Part shown: piece after piece, positions 3,468 through 61,103 of the stretch
How the letters are laid out: each line of letters starts with the position of its first letter
Numbering within the stretch: position 1 is the first letter of the stretch
NCBI GenBank assembly: GCA_963169235.1
Contig: CAUJCX010000035.1
Location: forward strand, 186,001-250,000
Source: Actinomycetota bacterium
GTDB lineage: Bacteria > Actinomycetota > Thermoleophilia > Miltoncostaeales > Miltoncostaeaceae
Reading direction: 5' to 3'
Length of the DNA stretch: 64,000 bases
The notes under the pieces: generated by a model
The model's input: the letters and a program-made list of their open reading frames with translations, nothing else
What the model was told of the DNA's origin: nothing
Database searches by the model: none
Translations under genes and position numbers: made by a program

Positions 3468-3497
3468 GTTCCTGCGGCGCCGCGGCGCCGCAGGAAC
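3468..3497. terminator. Perfect 30-nt palindrome after cysK
   Basis: The arms GTTCCTGCGGCGCCG and CGGCGCCGCAGGAAC are exact reverse complements, starting 13 nt past the cysK stop. The fold is very stable but has no T-run after it. It is probably an intrinsic-type terminator or an mRNA 3' end, and it would work on either strand. Confidence 0.5.
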
Positions 3498-3552: not shown

Positions 3553-3579
3553 TCAAGTCTTCCGGCACGCGGCCGAAGA
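3553..3579 (+). promoter_or_regulatory. Sigma28-type promoter (TCAA-N15-GCCGAAGA)
   Basis: TCAA at 3553-3556 and GCCGAAGA at 3572-3579 are separated by exactly 15 nt, the geometry of flagellar sigma28 promoters (enteric consensus TAAA-N15-GCCGATAA). The same pattern occurs before cheW and three other genes in this window. The site ends 54 nt before the beta-helix/collagen gene. Confidence 0.5.
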
Positions 3580-3633
3580 GGGCAAACCCGGCCGTCCCGA
3601 CACGGCGGCGGAAGACGCCTATCGGAGGTACCC

Positions 3634-4815
3634 GTGGCCCGCCACGCCCGACTGCTCGCGCTCGCCGCCCTCGGCGCGCTCGCCGCCATTCCCACCGCCG
3701 CCAACGCCCAGGCCACGAGGACCTGGATCTCCGGCGGGGGGGACGACACCAACGCGTGCTCGCGGACGTCCACGTGCAAGACGCTCGCGGGAGCCATCAG
3801 CAAGACGGCCGCGTGGGGCATCATCAACAGCCTCGATCCGGGCGGCTACGGCGCGGTGACCGTCACGAAGGCGATCACGATCGACCTCATGAGCGGCTCA
3901 CGCGGGGCGATCATGGTGCCCGCAACCCACGGTGTCACCGTCAATGCGGGCGCGACCGACGACGTGCTGTTGCGCTCGATCACCATTCAGGGCGCCGGCG
4001 ACTGCCGCGGTGCGTCGTCGCCGAACGCGGCCGCCTCCGGCGTGCGCATCATCAAGGCGCGGTCGGTCACCCTCGACGATGTCGTCATCACGAACGCCGT
4101 CGCCGGTGTGAAGGTCGAGAACACCGAGGGCAACGTCGATGTGACGGTCACGAACTCCAACTTCACGAACGTCTGCACCGGCATCCAGGTGGCGCCGACC
4201 GGGACGGGTACGGCCAACCTCCTCGTGGGCGGATCGGTGTTCGCCCATAACGTCACGGCGTTGTCGGTGGGCAGCGGCGGCACCCTGTCCATCGCCGAGT
4301 CGGCGCTGAGTTCCAACGACCTCGCGTACTCGGCCACGGGCACCGGCCGGATCACCAGCGCCGGTGGCGTCCGCCTGCTGGGCAACACGGCTGACGGCAC
4401 TCCCACGACGACGATCGCCGCGGAGGGCGTGGCCGGTCCGCAGGGCGCCGTGGGTGCCCAGGGCGCCGCCGGGGCCCCCGGCGCCGCGGGCGCGACCGGC
4501 GCGCCGGGTCCGGCAGGAGCGCCGCCCCGAGCGCCGCGGGCCGTGCTGTTGGTGGGCACGCCCACCGTGGCGCGCACCCGCGTGCGTATTCCGGTGGCCC
4601 TGTCGGCCCGGGGCAACGTCCTCGTCCAGGTGTACCGGGGCAAGCGTCAGGTCGCAACGATCCTTCAGGGCATCGCGCTCGGCCCGCGGGCCGTCACGTG
4701 GAACCGCCGCGTGAACGGCCGCCGGGCGCCACGAGGCGTGTACGCGGTGCGCATGACAGCGGTCACGCAGTCGGGCGCGACGGCGCGCGGGGTGACCCGC
4801 TTCGTCCTCCGCTAG
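3634..4815 (+). CDS. Secreted beta-helix protein with collagen-like repeat and C-terminal Ig-like domain
   Basis: This 393-residue protein begins with a signal peptide (ARHARLLALAALGALAA, cleavage near ANA-QA). Residues about 30-260 form a right-handed parallel beta-helix of the family with the pattern TWISGGGDDTNACSR..CKT..GAISKTA. Residues 265-297 are eleven uninterrupted Gly-X-Y triplets, and the last 90 residues look like a FlgD/Ig-type beta domain (LSARGNVLVQVYRGKRQVA..RGVYAVRM). The GTG at 3634 follows GGAGG by 5 nt. A sigma28-like promoter lies upstream. It is probably an exported surface or matrix protein, with no enzymatic role visible. Collagen repeats in bacteria usually form trimeric stalks, which is family knowledge. 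Confidence 0.8.
   Translation: MARHARLLALAALGALAAIPTAANAQATRTWISGGGDDTNACSRTSTCKTLAGAISKTAAWGIINSLDPGGYGAVTVTKAITIDLMSGSRGAIMVPATHGVTVNAGATDDVLLRSITIQGAGDCRGASSPNAAASGVRIIKARSVTLDDVVITNAVAGVKVENTEGNVDVTVTNSNFTNVCTGIQVAPTGTGTANLLVGGSVFAHNVTALSVGSGGTLSIAESALSSNDLAYSATGTGRITSAGGVRLLGNTADGTPTTTIAAEGVAGPQGAVGAQGAAGAPGAAGATGAPGPAGAPPRAPRAVLLVGTPTVARTRVRIPVALSARGNVLVQVYRGKRQVATILQGIALGPRAVTWNRRVNGRRAPRGVYAVRMTAVTQSGATARGVTRFVLR
4426..4524 (+). repeat. Collagen-like Gly-X-Y repeat, 11 triplets
   Basis: The codons read GVA GPQ GAV GAQ GAA GAP GAA GAT GAP GPA GAP. Nearly all X and Y positions are Ala, Pro, Gln, Val or Thr, without charged residues. Confidence 0.9.
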
Positions 4816-6573: not shown

Positions 6574-7938
6574 ATGACCGTCGCCACCCGCCGCAACCGC
6601 GCCGCCCGCAACACCGCCGCCGTCATCGCCGGCGCCGCCCTGCTGGCAGGCACCGCGGCCACCGCCCAGGCCGCTCCCACGACGCGCGCCGACAACGGTG
6701 ACTCCGGTCTGGAACTGACGGTCTTCCGCCCCGACAACACCGCCCGCGGCGCCTGGTCGGGCACCATCTTCACGGTCATCGACGGCTCCCAGTACTCGGC
6801 GATGTGCGTTGAGCTCGCCGTGACGTACCCGGTCGGCACGCACGCCGTGACGGTGACGCCGCGGGACATGACCGACGCCGACAACCGCGCGGCGGCCTGG
6901 ATCGTCAACCACGCCGTCCCGGCCCGCTGGACGGCGCCCGCCACGGGCCCCACCGCGTCCGACGACCACGCCTCGGCCGTCGCCGCCGTCGCCGTGTGGC
7001 AGGTCACCGGCAACGTCCGCGCGACCAACCCCACCACCAGCGCCTCCATCAACACCGAGGTCGCGGCCCTGGTGGCCCGCGCCCGCGCCGCCACCGCCAC
7101 GCCCGCGTTCGTCAGCCTCTCCGCCGCCACGCCCGCGGCCGGCGTGACCACGGCCGACGTCGCCGTCACCGGTCGCCCGGGCGCCACCGTCGACCTCACC
7201 ATCGGCGCCGGCACCGGGACGTTGTCCGCCGCCTCCGTCACGCTCGACGCCTCAGGCAAGGCCACCGTCCGCCTGACCAGCGCCACCCCGGGCGCCACGA
7301 CCGTCGCGGCGGCCACCGAGGGCGACAGCACCCTGATGGACGTCCGCACCAGCACGTTCGTGAGCCAGCGCCAGGTCGTCGCGCGCCCCGACGTGGTCCG
7401 CGCCTCCACGTCGGTGACGTTCTCCCCGTCCAACGTGACGACGCCGCCCGAGGGCCCCGCGACGCCGATCCCGCCGGCCCCGCCCGCCACGCCGCCGACC
7501 GTGACCACGCCGTCCCCGTCCCTGCCCGTGGCCGTGACGGCCGCCCGTCCCGGCACCGCCTCCATGCGCCTGGTGAAGCGCGGCCCGGCCCGCGCCCGCG
7601 CCGGTGAGCGTCTCACCTACGTCCTGCTCGTGACCAACACCGGCACCGCCGCGGCGCGCAACGTCCGCGTGGCCGACGTGCTGCCCGCCGGCCTGACCGT
7701 GGCCCAGGGATCGAAGGGCCGCATCGCCGGCGGCACCGTCCGCTGGACCATCCCGAACCTGGCCCCGGGCGCCACCCGCCGCATCGTGGTCCCGGTGCGG
7801 GCCGCCGCCGGCATCACCGGCCGCCGCGTCAACACCGCCACCGCCAGCGCCGACGGCGTGGCCCGCGTCACCGCGACGGCGACCACCGTGTTCTCGGCCC
7901 CCGCCCCGCGCGCCGTGCTTCCCGCCGTCACCGGCTGA
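6574..7938 (+). CDS. Secreted protein with thioester-like N-domain and C-terminal DUF11 domain
   Basis: The 454-residue protein has a basic N-terminus and signal peptide ([19 protein letters not shown]), with cleavage near residue 35. Residues about 40-150 look like the Cys-Gln thioester adhesin domain: a MCVEL cysteine, and a late AAVAVWQVTGN motif like AVQxAIW. The glutamine that would form the thioester is replaced, so the bond is doubtful. Two Ig-like beta domains and a Pro-rich linker (about 290-325) follow, then DUF11 (YVLLVTNTGTAAARNVRVAD). No sortase signal or C-terminal membrane segment is present. It is probably a surface or matrix protein. The ATG at 6574 has a GGAGG site. Confidence 0.65.
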   Translation: MTVATRRNRAARNTAAVIAGAALLAGTAATAQAAPTTRADNGDSGLELTVFRPDNTARGAWSGTIFTVIDGSQYSAMCVELAVTYPVGTHAVTVTPRDMTDADNRAAAWIVNHAVPARWTAPATGPTASDDHASAVAAVAVWQVTGNVRATNPTTSASINTEVAALVARARAATATPAFVSLSAATPAAGVTTADVAVTGRPGATVDLTIGAGTGTLSAASVTLDASGKATVRLTSATPGATTVAAATEGDSTLMDVRTSTFVSQRQVVARPDVVRASTSVTFSPSNVTTPPEGPATPIPPAPPATPPTVTTPSPSLPVAVTAARPGTASMRLVKRGPARARAGERLTYVLLVTNTGTAAARNVRVADVLPAGLTVAQGSKGRIAGGTVRWTIPNLAPGATRRIVVPVRAAAGITGRRVNTATASADGVARVTATATTVFSAPAPRAVLPAVTG

Positions 7939-58378: not shown

Positions 58379-60106
58379 ATGATGATGAACCTGGTCCTTG
58401 CCATCGCCGCCGTGGGCGCCCTGATGCTGCTGCTGGTGTTGCGGCGCAAGCAGGCTGCCGCGGGCGCGTCGGACAAGGGGGCCAAGGCCAAGGCGCCGAA
58501 GCCCGCCAAGGCGGCGAAGGCCTCGAAGGTGAAGGCCTCTCGGGTGAAGGCCACGAAGGAGAAGGCCCCGAAAGAGAAGTCGGGCCGCCGGTTTGGACGC
58601 CGTGGTGGGGCGGACTCCGGCGACGACATCGCGGACACCGTGGACGTCGCCCCCGTCATGACCCCCGTGGTGGGCGTCGCCCCCCTGCCCGCCGAGACGG
58701 AGCCCGCCTCCGCCCTCGCGTTCGCCCAGGAGAGCGGTGACGAGCCGGACTGGGACACCATGCGCGCCGAGATGATGGGGCTGGAGCCCCAGGCCGAGCC
58801 CGCGCTGGCGACGGCCGAGTCGGCCGCTGCGGTCGCGCCGGTGGCGCCGGAGGCGGAGGCCCCCGTCCAGACGTGGGACGACGACCTCATCACCGAGCCC
58901 GGCTGGCCCATCCCTGGCGATCAGGATCCGAGCTGGGCCGAGGCGCACGCCGTCGGCGCTGCGGGCGCGCCCGCGGAGACCATCGGCGCGCCGTCCGAGC
59001 CGCCGATGCTGGGCGCCGACCCGGGCGACCAGCCCACCGGCACGTTCGAGTGGCCGTCCGCGGACCAGCAGTGGCAGGCCGCGAGCGAGACCGCGGACGA
59101 GGCGGACGCCGCCGCGCCGGCGTTCGACGACGCCCAGGACACCGGTGCCATCGGCTTCATGGACTTCGCGGCCGTGAACGCGTCCCCGGAGGCCGAGCCG
59201 GCCGCCGAGCTCGCGCCGGTGGAGGAGCCGGTGCAGGAGTTCGCTCCGGCTCCCGAGTTCGCTCCCGCTCCCGAGTTCGCCCCGGTGGAGGCCCCGGTGC
59301 AGGAGTTCGCCCCGGCCCCCGAGTTCGCTCCGGCTCCCGAGTTCGCTCCGGCCCCTGAGTTCGCTGCCGCTGCGGAGCTCGCTCCGGTGGCGGAGCCGGT
59401 GCAGGAGTTCGCCCCGGCCCCCGAGTTCGCTCCGGCTCCCGAGTTCGCCGCCGCTGCGGAGCTTGCTCCGGTGGCGGATCCCGTGCAGGAGTTCGCTGCG
59501 GCCCCCGAGTTCGCTCCGGCCGCTGAGTTTGCTGCCTCCCCCGAGTTCGCCCCGGTGGCCGACACGGCCCCGGAGTTCGCTGCCCCCCCCGAGTTCGCCC
59601 CCGTGGCGGAGATCGCCCCGGTCGAGGCGTTCGCTCCCTCGGCGGTGCAGGAGTTCGCCGCGGTGTCGGCTCCCGAGGACGCGCCGGCGCTGGCGCCGCC
59701 CGCGGACGTGGCACCCGTCGCGGCGTTCGACTGGGCGCCCGCCGAGACGCCGGCTCCCGTCGATCCCCCCGCGAGCGCCGCGATGCCGCTCGACGACGCG
59801 CTCACCGGGCGCTTCGCGATCGGTGGCATGGCCCTCGACGGCGGGCACGAGGCCCTCACGCGGGTCGCGTTCCGGGCCCCGCTGGTGGGTGACGTGCCCA
59901 CGGCCTGGGGCCGTCGCCACGACGCCGACCTCGCCTCCGGCACCATCGTGCTGCAGGTGGAGGCCGTGATGAACTGCGACGCCTCCAGCCTCGAGGTGAT
60001 GCTCGACCCGGGCTTCGCCCCCACGCGCGACGGCTTCTCGGTGCGGCTGGCATCGGTGGCCAAGGGTCCGTTCGCGGCCAGCGGCACGTTCTGGGTGGTG
60101 CCGTAG
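58379..60106 (+). CDS. Unrecognised-family protein B: membrane anchor, basic stretch, EFAPAP repeats, C-terminal domain
   Basis: The 575-residue protein starts with a membrane helix (LVLAIAAVGALMLLLVL, residues 5-21), then a lysine-rich, histone H1-like stretch (about 23-75; KAKAPKPAKAAKASK), acidic and Pro/Ala-rich regions, and a repeat (285-427) of EFAPAP units broken by ELAPVAEPVQ. The C-terminal domain (about 474-575) has TGRFAIGGMA, IVLQVEAVMNCDASS, FAPTRDGFSVRLASVAKGPF. The charge after the helix puts the rest in the cytoplasm by the positive-inside rule. Three ATG codons in a row follow GGAGG at 9 nt. The function is unknown; the repeat suggests a flexible stalk or spacer. Confidence 0.7.
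   Translation: MMMNLVLAIAAVGALMLLLVLRRKQAAAGASDKGAKAKAPKPAKAAKASKVKASRVKATKEKAPKEKSGRRFGRRGGADSGDDIADTVDVAPVMTPVVGVAPLPAETEPASALAFAQESGDEPDWDTMRAEMMGLEPQAEPALATAESAAAVAPVAPEAEAPVQTWDDDLITEPGWPIPGDQDPSWAEAHAVGAAGAPAETIGAPSEPPMLGADPGDQPTGTFEWPSADQQWQAASETADEADAAAPAFDDAQDTGAIGFMDFAAVNASPEAEPAAELAPVEEPVQEFAPAPEFAPAPEFAPVEAPVQEFAPAPEFAPAPEFAPAPEFAAAAELAPVAEPVQEFAPAPEFAPAPEFAAAAELAPVADPVQEFAAAPEFAPAAEFAASPEFAPVADTAPEFAAPPEFAPVAEIAPVEAFAPSAVQEFAAVSAPEDAPALAPPADVAPVAAFDWAPAETPAPVDPPASAAMPLDDALTGRFAIGGMALDGGHEALTRVAFRAPLVGDVPTAWGRRHDADLASGTIVLQVEAVMNCDASSLEVMLDPGFAPTRDGFSVRLASVAKGPFAASGTFWVVP
59231..59660 (+). repeat. EFAPAP repeat array in gene B
   Basis: Short units E-F-A-(P/A)-(A/V)-P recur about 20 times, grouped into longer units that begin with V-Q-E-F-A and contain A-E-L-A-P-V. 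The DNA repeats are imperfect, with mixed GCC/GCT and GTG/GTC codons, so the array is old rather than recently expanded. Confidence 0.85.
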
Positions 60107-60149: not shown

Positions 60150-60176
60150 TCAAGTGGCGTTGACAACTGCCGATGA
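60150..60176 (+). promoter_or_regulatory. Sigma28-type promoter before the third unrecognised-family gene (TCAA-N15-GCCGATGA)
   Basis: TCAA (60150-60153), 15 nt, then GCCGATGA (60169-60176), ending 33 nt before the GTG at 60210. AACTGCCGAT is identical, 10 nt long, to the same region before gene B. Confidence 0.55.
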
Positions 60177-60209
60177 GGCGGACGACCCGTAACGCTCGTC
60201 CGTGAGGCA

Positions 60210-61103
60210 GTGGTGTTCAAGACGCTTCGAAACGTGTTCCTGCTCGCCGCCGGCATCTACATCGCGCTGCGCTGGCTGCGGCGCTCCAACGCCCGTGCGA
60301 TCGCCCGCACGGCGGCGGCAAACCAGGCGATCCCGCCGGCTGCGCCGGCGCCCGCGCCCGAGCCCGTCGCCACGCCCGTGCCGGCCGCGCCCGAGCCCGC
60401 CGCGGAGGTCGCTGCGGTGCCTGCGTCGCCGTCCGTGCCGCTCGCCGCGCCGGTCATGGTCGCTCCCGAGGTCGAGCCCGAGCCCGTGGCCATGCCGGTG
60501 ACGGCGGGCGCCGAGGTGGCCGCCACCACCGTCGCCCCGGTGGCCCGCGGCAACGTGGCACCCCGCGACCATGCGTCGGTGTTCGACGCGCACATCTGCT
60601 CCGCTCCCGCGATCGAGCCCGTGCTGGACGGTCCGGTGGACGACGCCCCGGCGCGCGCCGTGCTCGAGCAGCTGACGGCCGCGCTGCGGGAGGTCGGGGA
60701 CGGCACCTGGATGGTGGGCGACGACGCCGCGGACGAGCCGGACGTCGACGCGCCCTCCGCCGCGACACCTGCCCAGACGCCCGCCCCCGCGCCGGACGGC
60801 GCGGTGAGCGGCACGTTCGTGGTCAGCGGCATCGCCTCCGGGCCCCGCCAGGTGATGATGGGCGTGGTGGCGTTCCCCCGCACGCTTGCGCTGGCGCCGA
60901 CCGACTGGCAGCGCGGTGGCGCGGCCCCGTCCGGTGTGCTGGTGCTCGACGTCGACAACACGGCCAACTGCGATCCCGAGACCGTGGGCGTGGTGTTCGT
61001 CAACGGCTATGCGCCGTCCACCGACGGTTTCACCGTGCGGGTGGTCAGCGCAGCGGCCGGGCCGTTCACGGCCGGCGGGCGTTTCACCTTCGCCGACGGC
61101 TGA
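60210..61103 (+). CDS. Unrecognised-family protein C: membrane anchor, Pro/Ala linker, C-terminal domain
   Basis: The 297-residue protein has a membrane helix (NVFLLAAGIYIALRWL, residues 8-23) followed by basic RRSNARAIAR, a Pro/Ala/Val-rich linker (about 45-130), a short helical stretch (VLEQLTAALREVGDGTWMVG), and the shared C-terminal domain (about 196-297; VSGTFVVSGIAS, VLVLDVDNTANCDPET, GYAPSTDGFTVRVVSAAAG, PFTAGGRFTF). It shares NCD and GFT/GFS..AAxGPF with gene B. The start is the GTG at 60210 or 60213. It is likely to work with genes A and B, but nothing shows how. Confidence 0.68.
   Translation: MVFKTLRNVFLLAAGIYIALRWLRRSNARAIARTAAANQAIPPAAPAPAPEPVATPVPAAPEPAAEVAAVPASPSVPLAAPVMVAPEVEPEPVAMPVTAGAEVAATTVAPVARGNVAPRDHASVFDAHICSAPAIEPVLDGPVDDAPARAVLEQLTAALREVGDGTWMVGDDAADEPDVDAPSAATPAQTPAPAPDGAVSGTFVVSGIASGPRQVMMGVVAFPRTLALAPTDWQRGGAAPSGVLVLDVDNTANCDPETVGVVFVNGYAPSTDGFTVRVVSAAAGPFTAGGRFTFADG

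What the first reader, a model, noticed from the sequence alone, without database searches (positions are those of the whole stretch)
3634..4815. Beta-helix, collagen repeat and Ig-like domain in one exported protein under a sigma28-type promoter
A beta-helix head, an 11-triplet Gly-X-Y stalk and a C-terminal beta domain form an unusual order, with the stalk in the middle. The flagellar-type promoter suggests a link to motility, surface attachment or a cell appendage.
Basis: partly seen in the sequence, partly recalled or inferred. Interest (0 to 1): 0.5.

Follow-up and report, generated by a model that had tools for sequence, protein, structure and literature searches.

The report
Flagellar-regulon collagen-stalk beta-helix surface protein
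A flagellated actinobacterium encodes an exported protein made of a beta-helix, a short collagen-like stretch and an Ig-like tail, and its promoter is of the kind that switches on flagellum, chemotaxis and other surface genes, so it may belong to the coat of the swimming cell.

Summary
Window 3634-4815 encodes a 393-aa protein: signal peptide, right-handed beta-helix (residues 27-261, VIA Z 21.4), 11 unbroken Gly-X-Y triplets (265-297; 100,000 shuffles reached at most 8) and an Ig-like tail (304-392, Z 11.8). The sigma28-type promoter TCAAGT-N13-GCCGA (3553-3576) passes every sequence test I could run. The genome has 20 such sites against 1 for the reversed pattern, and 18 of 20 sit within 100 nt of a same-strand gene start. 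Targets include FliS, a chemoreceptor, two wall-hydrolase-like proteins, four GGDEF proteins, a response regulator, a prepilin and exported proteins. Most flagellin genes examined carry the motif. The same-genus ortholog keeps both boxes (11/11 bases) where flanks are 43% identical. The only sigma factor over the FliA/WhiG cut-off is WhiG-like. 'Unusual order' is not supported: collagen between two domains is the usual prokaryotic layout, and this build recurs in 9 of 79 related loci, Thermoleophilia as far as I can place them. A convincing promoter is found only in this genus. Trimerisation, anchoring, adhesion and transcription are untested; some relatives have 4-7 triplets, so the stretch may be a linker. 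New member of a known kind, in an interesting regulon.

The parts
3468..3497 (+). Perfect hairpin (14-bp arms, 2-nt loop) after cysK, possibly its terminator
   Evidence: the same-genus genome has a different perfect hairpin (11-bp arms, 9-nt loop) in the same place (L065:2858-2888). The consensus scan found no terminator-like site with a T-run, so the role is inferred
3553..3558 (+). -35-like box TCAAGT of the sigma28/WhiG-class promoter
   Evidence: conserved in the G001 ortholog
3572..3577 (+). -10-like box GCCGAA (GCCGA in the pattern), 13-nt spacer
   Evidence: G001 has GCCGAT at the same spacing
3624..3628 (+). Ribosome-binding site GGAGG, 5 nt before GTG
   Evidence: read by eye
3634..4815 (+). 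Gene for the 393-aa exported three-part protein
   Evidence: ortholog in G001 about 60% identical in the same gene order
3634..3708 (+). Signal peptide, residues 1-25 (cleavage ANA|QA by eye)
   Evidence: sequence, by eye; helical in the model
3712..4416 (+). Right-handed parallel beta-helix head, residues 27-261
   Evidence: AlphaFold2; VIA Z 21.4 to 6kfn, rmsd 2.8, 215 aligned
4426..4524 (+). 11 Gly-X-Y triplets, residues 265-297
   Evidence: Pfam Collagen E 6.3e-5, below cut-off; low pLDDT as a monomer
4543..4812 (+). C-terminal Ig-like domain, residues 304-393
   Evidence: AlphaFold2 pLDDT 94.6 for residues 299-393; VIA Z 11.8 to 8jmw, rmsd 2.2, 93 aligned; Foldseek E 1.1e-4
60150..60173 (+). 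Second site of the same motif in the window
60210..61103 (+). Putative regulon gene of unknown family, 297 aa, 36 nt after the motif
   Evidence: no Pfam match at E 0.1

Best explanation
The gene belongs to the FliA/WhiG-class (sigma28-type) regulon of a flagellated Thermoleophilia species. The genome's WhiG-like sigma factor transcribes it together with flagellar, chemotaxis, GGDEF and other exported-protein genes. The product is exported by its signal peptide and works outside the cell as a surface or matrix protein: the beta-helix head faces a surface or glycan, the Gly-X-Y stretch is a spacer that may trimerise, and the Ig-like tail packs against the cell or other proteins. It would be made when the cell is in its swimming or dispersal state. 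Shown by sequence: promoter motif, set of sites and targets, conservation, and folds as predicted models. Inferred: transcription by this sigma factor, location, trimerisation, binding, timing.
For: 20 sites in the genome against 1 for the reversed pattern, all with spacer 13 or 14 although 12-15 was allowed. In 18 of 20 an ORF of at least 80 aa starts within 100 nt downstream on the same strand and is the long or only frame; one more (L006) precedes a 69-aa exported-looking ORF read by eye. Targets by Pfam: FliS, MCP, CHAP, glucosaminidase (below cut-off), 4 GGDEF, response regulator, N_methyl prepilin, and proteins with Vgb_lyase, RCC1 and Big_8/DUF11 domains. 12 of 17 flagellin upstream regions score at least 10/12 for the motif; of 5 further loci reported, two score 11/12 and one 10/12; the host's own flagellin-like gene scores 10/12. 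The ortholog keeps both boxes, 11 of 11 bases, against 43% identity in 134 flanking columns, and the gene order pfkB-cysK-gene-GNAT-cysE. One sigma over the FliA/WhiG cut-off in a 96%-complete genome. Rod/hook-type proteins present (PF06429, 6 matches, 5 over cut-off). Folds.
Against: No transcription data. No LPXTG or other anchor seen in the sequence. Homologs outside the genus lack the motif: 6 of 79 loci reach 10/12 or better but so do 5 of 79 reversed controls, and only the G001 ortholog is convincing; G055 and G040 lack the motif although they have a sigma over the FliA/WhiG cut-off. So the protein family as such is not flagellar. The motif is also enriched in some genomes without flagellin (G007 18:6, G011 11:2, G016 6:0). 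5 of 17 flagellin regions did not reach 10/12, and 2 of 5 had no hit at 9/12. Gly-X-Y runs shrink to 4-7 triplets in 6 of 9 relatives with the same build. Beta-helix folds serve enzymes as well as adhesins.
Confidence: 0.55

Rival explanations
1. The protein is a secreted polysaccharide-acting enzyme (lyase, esterase or epimerase type beta-helix) released by motile cells to loosen matrix or to feed; the Gly-X-Y and Ig parts are a linker and a binding or packing domain.
For: The closest folds to the head include alginate and pectate lyases and capsule depolymerases; a carbohydrate-binding module and GbpA are among the matches of the tail.
Against: Of positions where D, E, H, K, R, N, Q, Y, W or C is shared by 70% or more of 53 sequences, 18 lie in residues 26-114 (N-terminal cap and first coils) and only three asparagine positions (228, 246, 251) beyond (Ser/Thr not counted), so no conserved catalytic group is evident in the body of the helix. 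The same match list holds the adhesin PfbA (Z 17.8).
Confidence: 0.2
2. The Gly-X-Y stretch is a flexible linker, the protein is a monomer, and there is no collagen stalk.
For: Only 11 triplets with 5 prolines in 22 X/Y positions (sequence); 8 of the 9 relatives with this build have 4 to 9 triplets at the same place; Pfam Collagen below cut-off.
Against: The register is unbroken for 33 residues here, and the ortholog at about 60% identity also has 11 triplets, which a mere linker would not need.
Confidence: 0.4
3. The promoter match is a chance hit of a short motif in a GC-rich genome.
For: The -10 box reads GCCGAA, not the full GCCGATAA; no TSS data exist.
Against: 20:1 genome enrichment, coherent targets, conservation of the boxes at the ortholog.
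Confidence: 0.03

Closest known systems
Prokaryotic collagen-like proteins (Scl1/Scl2, BclA, Bacillus amyloliquefaciens collagen-like proteins)
   Same: Exported protein with a Gly-X-Y stretch flanked by N- and C-terminal domains; a motility link has a precedent, as two of four B. amyloliquefaciens collagen-like proteins are reported in flagella with a role in motility (review PMC8968730, passages).
   Different: Only 11 triplets (50 in an Scl1, 79 in an Scl2, same passages); beta-helix head; no LPXTG seen; triple helix not shown.
Secreted right-handed beta-helix proteins (compare Pfam Beta_helix, PF13229) of Bradyrhizobium, Sphingomonas, Lysobacter, Acidobacteria and others
   Same: The head with its conserved ATRTW..GVGDDANPCSRTAPCKT start.
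   Different: Of the 70 loci outside the nine with this build, 69 have no Gly-X-Y run of 4 or more and one (L123) has a 4-triplet match inside the helix.
FlgD Ig-like domain (PF13860) and other bacterial Ig/Fn3-like domains
   Same: Ig-like fold and a sequence trace: 4 of 8 relatives scanned match FlgD_ig.
   Different: All below the curated cut-off of 27 bits; no match for the window protein itself.
WhiG-(c-di-GMP)-RsiG switch of Rubrobacter and Thermoleophilia
   Same: A WhiG-like sigma, flagellar-type promoters, several GGDEF targets and a prepilin target, as described for Rubrobacter pili and DGC/PDE genes (PMC8325347, passages).
   Different: Here flagellar and chemotaxis genes are among the targets; no RsiG with the exact motif was found.

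Membership tests
Prokaryotic collagen-like protein | Uninterrupted Gly-X-Y repeats beyond chance | tested here: met
   11 triplets; 0 of 100,000 shuffles reached 9
Prokaryotic collagen-like protein | Passes the curated Pfam Collagen cut-off | tested here: not met
   23.1 bits against 27.2; ortholog 24.7
Prokaryotic collagen-like protein | Forms a triple helix / trimer | not testable with these tools
   only single-chain prediction is offered; the stretch has low pLDDT
LPXTG-anchored collagen-like adhesin (Scl type) | C-terminal LPXTG sorting signal and membrane helix | tested here: not met
   none in the sequence (by eye); NCBIfam SclA/SclB far below cut-off, 16.4 of 400 and 14.5 of 325 bits
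Right-handed parallel beta-helix proteins | Beta-helix fold of the head | tested here: met
   AlphaFold2 model, VIA Z 21.4. Pfam Beta_helix is over cut-off in 5 of 8 relatives scanned (L068 of the nine was not scanned) but does not match the window protein at E 1
FlgD Ig-like domain | Passes the Pfam FlgD_ig cut-off | tested here: not met
   best 21.4 bits against 27 in relatives; no match in the window protein. The Ig-like fold itself is supported
Sigma28 (FliA/WhiG) promoter | -35 and -10 boxes close to TAAA / GCCGATAA at flagellar spacing | tested here: met
   TCAAGT-N13-GCCGAA; like motif at most flagellins examined; consensus from PMC8325347 passages. The exact spacing of the classical consensus is recalled
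Sigma28 (FliA/WhiG) promoter | Transcription start at the site, dependent on the sigma factor | not testable with these tools
   no expression data
WhiG-RsiG-c-di-GMP switch | Single-motif RsiG, E(X)3S(X)2R(X)3Q(X)3D | tested here: inconclusive
   the exact-motif DNA pattern gave 6 places in G000 and 2 in G001, none a small RsiG-like ORF; a diverged motif would be missed
FlgM-controlled FliA | FlgM anti-sigma factor | tested here: inconclusive
   PF04316 matched 0 of 4 genomes at E 0.1; short diverged proteins can be missed

The most novel reading that the evidence does not exclude
In this flagellated Thermoleophilia genus a single WhiG-type sigma factor, probably gated by c-di-GMP, drives one 'swimmer' programme that joins flagellum completion and chemotaxis to a dedicated exported coat, of which this beta-helix/collagen/Ig protein is one trimeric, stalked member. 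I saw no such coat programme of motile actinobacterial cells in the listings of my literature searches, which cover only an open-access library.
Probability: 0.3. Interest if true: 0.6.

Novelty: new member of a known kind. Interest (0 to 1): 0.42.

Why it matters
It gives a concrete, testable flagellar-type regulon for a poorly studied actinobacterial class. By my reading 12 of its 20 sites in the host genome precede exported or pilin-like proteins (8) or GGDEF proteins (4) rather than flagellar genes. That offers a way to ask how swimming cells of this group change their surface, and whether the old WhiG sigma factor first served motility. The protein itself adds a beta-helix-headed collagen-like build that recurs in Thermoleophilia.

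Tried and rejected
A general link of the protein family to sigma28 was tested on 79 loci and rejected: 6 hits at 10/12 or better against 5 for reversed sequence, the only convincing one being the same-genus ortholog. RsiG by exact motif: 6 places in G000 and 2 in G001; the motif as peptide was found in only two frames, one a GGDEF-EAL-like protein and one an unrelated ORF. FlgM: 0 of 4 genomes. Pfam, NCBIfam and PDB sequence searches of the protein itself gave only the weak collagen match, NosD and Scl traces far below cut-off, and one chance antibody hit at E 0.66. A search with the tail profile in 10 genomes (9 with a match) found, beyond the family itself, weaker matches in other proteins (best E 1.4e-9; tails of three, L201, L202 and L214, looked at). 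This neither supports nor excludes a shared anchor role. Literature: the one paper that holds both 'collagen-like' and 'Thermoleophilia' is a review on microbes of fruit and vegetables, seen as a listing only; the other searches listed nothing on this build. In the first flagellin scan I gave the script 9 loci and it reported 5, because its text filter missed the rest: L036 and L040 11/12, L038 10/12, L037 and L044 no hit at 9/12. L039, the host's, was tested; L041, L042 and L043 (weaker flagellin-domain matches) were not tested. In one search, 12 of 17 regions reached 10/12, 5 did not; G019 and G022 share two identical sites, so the 12 are not all independent, and the start codons used for distances were picked by rule. 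The script picked wrong frames for two targets (L163, L164); the response regulator was then taken and scanned, and the small ORF of L006/L163 was read by eye.

Full report
What is there. Window 3634-4815 (+) encodes 393 aa from a GTG start with GGAGG five bases before it (by eye). The sequence begins with a signal peptide (by eye; no predictor run). AlphaFold2 on a 53-sequence alignment (mean pLDDT 87.3) gives a beta-helix at residues 27-261, low confidence at about 261-300 and an all-beta domain at about 304-392. Against solved structures the head aligns to right-handed beta-helices (6kfn alginate lyase Z 21.4, rmsd 2.8, 215 aligned; tailspikes, pectate lyases and the adhesin PfbA are also listed). 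The tail, modelled alone (residues 299-393, pLDDT 94.6), aligns to Ig-like domains (8jmw Z 11.8, rmsd 2.2, 93 aligned; Foldseek E 1.1e-4). Residues 265-297 are 11 unbroken Gly-X-Y triplets; 100,000 shuffles of residues 27-393 gave at most 8. Pfam scores collagen at 23.1 bits, below its cut-off of 27.2.

The promoter. TCAAGT-N13-GCCGA lies at 3553-3576. The published flagellar consensus is TAAA / GCCGATAA (PMC8325347, passages). In the window two sites are found against 0.05 expected; in the whole genome 20 against 1 for the reversed pattern. All 20 have a 13- or 14-base spacer though 12-15 was allowed. In 18 of 20 cases an ORF of at least 80 aa that is the long or only frame starts within 100 nt downstream on the same strand. 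Of the other two, L006 precedes a 69-aa exported-looking ORF (read by eye), and L010/L167 has a short 83-aa frame 9 nt away and the long frame 187 nt away, perhaps a broken or mis-assembled gene.

The regulon. The 20 sites precede: FliS; a methyl-accepting chemotaxis protein; a CHAP protein; a glucosaminidase (27.4 bits, below its cut-off of 30.2); four GGDEF proteins; a response regulator; a protein with a type IV prepilin leader; proteins with a Vgb_lyase propeller, RCC1 repeats and Big_8/DUF11 domains; two Ig_2-like paralogs (below cut-off); three proteins without a Pfam match (L158, L172, window 60210-61103); the small ORF of L006 (not scanned); and the gene studied. In the same-genus genome G001 the motif occurs 14 times against 1. 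Targets shared by BLASTP are the CHAP protein (71% identity), the Vgb protein (44% over 252), a GGDEF protein (59%), an MCP (51% over 138 residues only), a second GGDEF pair (28%) and the window gene (58%). Both genomes also have a response-regulator target (alike by eye). G001 adds PilZ, CAP and globin-MCP targets. Five of the 14 G001 sites gave no trustworthy downstream frame by my script (L148, L149, L151, L156, L157).

Is it flagellar? Flagellin is found in 13 of 61 genomes and a sigma over the FliA/WhiG cut-off in 43 of 61. Motif counts exceed the control more in the 13 (126:45 in sum) than in the 48 others (280:212); Mann-Whitney p = 0.0007 on differences, 0.004 on log ratios, 0.02 within the own family (relatedness not corrected for). 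Against a purely flagellar role, some genomes without flagellin are also enriched (G007 18:6, G011 11:2, G016 6:0), and one genome with flagellin is not (G003 2:5). Upstream of flagellins 12 of 17 regions reach 10/12 for TCAAGT / GCCGAT and 5 do not (a frequent form is TCAAGT-N13-TCCGAT). Of five further loci two reach 11/12, one 10/12 and two have no hit. The host's own flagellin-like gene has TCAAGC-N13-TCCGAT 205 nt upstream. The host has rod/hook-type proteins (PF06429) and one sigma over the FliA/WhiG cut-off. That sigma is closest to 6pfj and 6pfv (4.5e-82 and 7e-82), ahead of FliA (6pmi, 2.1e-53). The table names 6pfj only 'RNA polymerase sigma factor'; that it is Streptomyces WhiG is recalled. 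The chain labelled WhiG (7lq4, Rubrobacter, 198 residues) gives 4.4e-34.

Conservation at this gene. The G001 ortholog (60% identity) lies in the same order, pfkB-cysK-gene-GNAT-cysE. Between cysK and the gene the two genomes are 43% identical over 134 flanking columns, yet all 11 box bases are the same (about 8e-5 at that identity if bases were independent). Each has a different perfect hairpin after cysK, so the gene probably has its own transcript.

Relatives. A scan of species genomes with two conserved N-terminal peptides gave 493 relatives of the head; the best 79 distinct loci were kept, so what follows concerns those only. The three-part build with 4 to 11 triplets occurs in 9 of 79 (L065-L072, L075). 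L123 has a 4-triplet match inside the helix. In the other 69 (Bradyrhizobium, Sphingomonas, Lysobacter, Acidobacteria and others) there is no run of 4 triplets. Homologs in genomes without flagellin (G055, G024 with two copies, G040) have no motif in the loci fetched; G055 and G040 do have a sigma over cut-off, G024 does not. So a convincing promoter is seen only in this genus; the family is not flagellar as such.

Host. The same-genus contig (41,769 bases) has the length and match of record JAGQUM010000024.1, 'Thermoleophilia bacterium isolate HKST-UBA59'. A survey found flagellar gene clusters in 41-91% of species of the basal actinobacterial classes, Thermoleophilia among them (PMC10746217, passages).

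Mechanism. Shown by sequence: the folds (as models), the Gly-X-Y run, the motif, its targets and its conservation. Inferred: that the WhiG-like sigma transcribes the gene; that the protein sits on the surface or in matrix; that the head binds a surface or glycan. Conserved charged, amide, aromatic or cysteine residues of the head lie in residues 26-114, apart from three asparagine positions, which speaks for structure rather than catalysis but does not exclude an enzyme. In Rubrobacter a WhiG gated by RsiG and c-di-GMP drives pili and DGC/PDE genes (PMC8325347, passages). Four GGDEF genes and a prepilin under the motif here suggest the same logic, but no RsiG was found with the exact motif and no FlgM.

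Known or new. A collagen-like region between two other domains is the usual prokaryotic layout, and collagen-like proteins in flagella of B. amyloliquefaciens are reported (PMC8968730, passages). By sequence the protein is a new member of that kind, though below the curated collagen cut-off; triple-helix formation was not testable. The regulon is the more interesting part.

Noticed in passing
window 60150-61103: A second site of the same motif 36 nt before a 297-aa ORF without Pfam match; its C-terminal part looks (by eye) paralogous to that of the preceding ORF 58379-60106.
   Followed up: partly
window 6574-7938: An exported-looking protein with a thioester domain (PF08341, 22.2 bits, cut-off 22.0) and DUF11: a possible covalent surface adhesin near the gene studied.
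   Followed up: partly
G000:C8:2949-3626 (L175): The WhiG/FliA-class sigma gene lies beside phosphotransferase-like and M23 peptidase-like ORFs (by eye), with no flagellar gene recognised in the 9 kb looked at.
   Followed up: partly
G000 loci L159, L162, L171, L173: Four GGDEF proteins stand directly behind the flagellar-type motif, hinting at c-di-GMP feedback as proposed for Rubrobacter.
   Followed up: partly
L159 and L167: The reading frames change character part-way (L159, low third-position GC) or lack a near start (L167); frame breaks or assembly errors are possible.
   Followed up: no
L039 (G000:C51): The only flagellin-domain match in the host is divergent and on a 4-kb contig; another flagellin may be missing from the assembly.
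   Followed up: no
L072: A record titled Bifidobacterium breve carries a Thermoleophilia-type locus and has the contig length of G024:C50; the label looks wrong.
   Followed up: no
G007, G011, G016: The motif is enriched in relatives without flagellin, which suggests non-flagellar WhiG regulons there.
   Followed up: no
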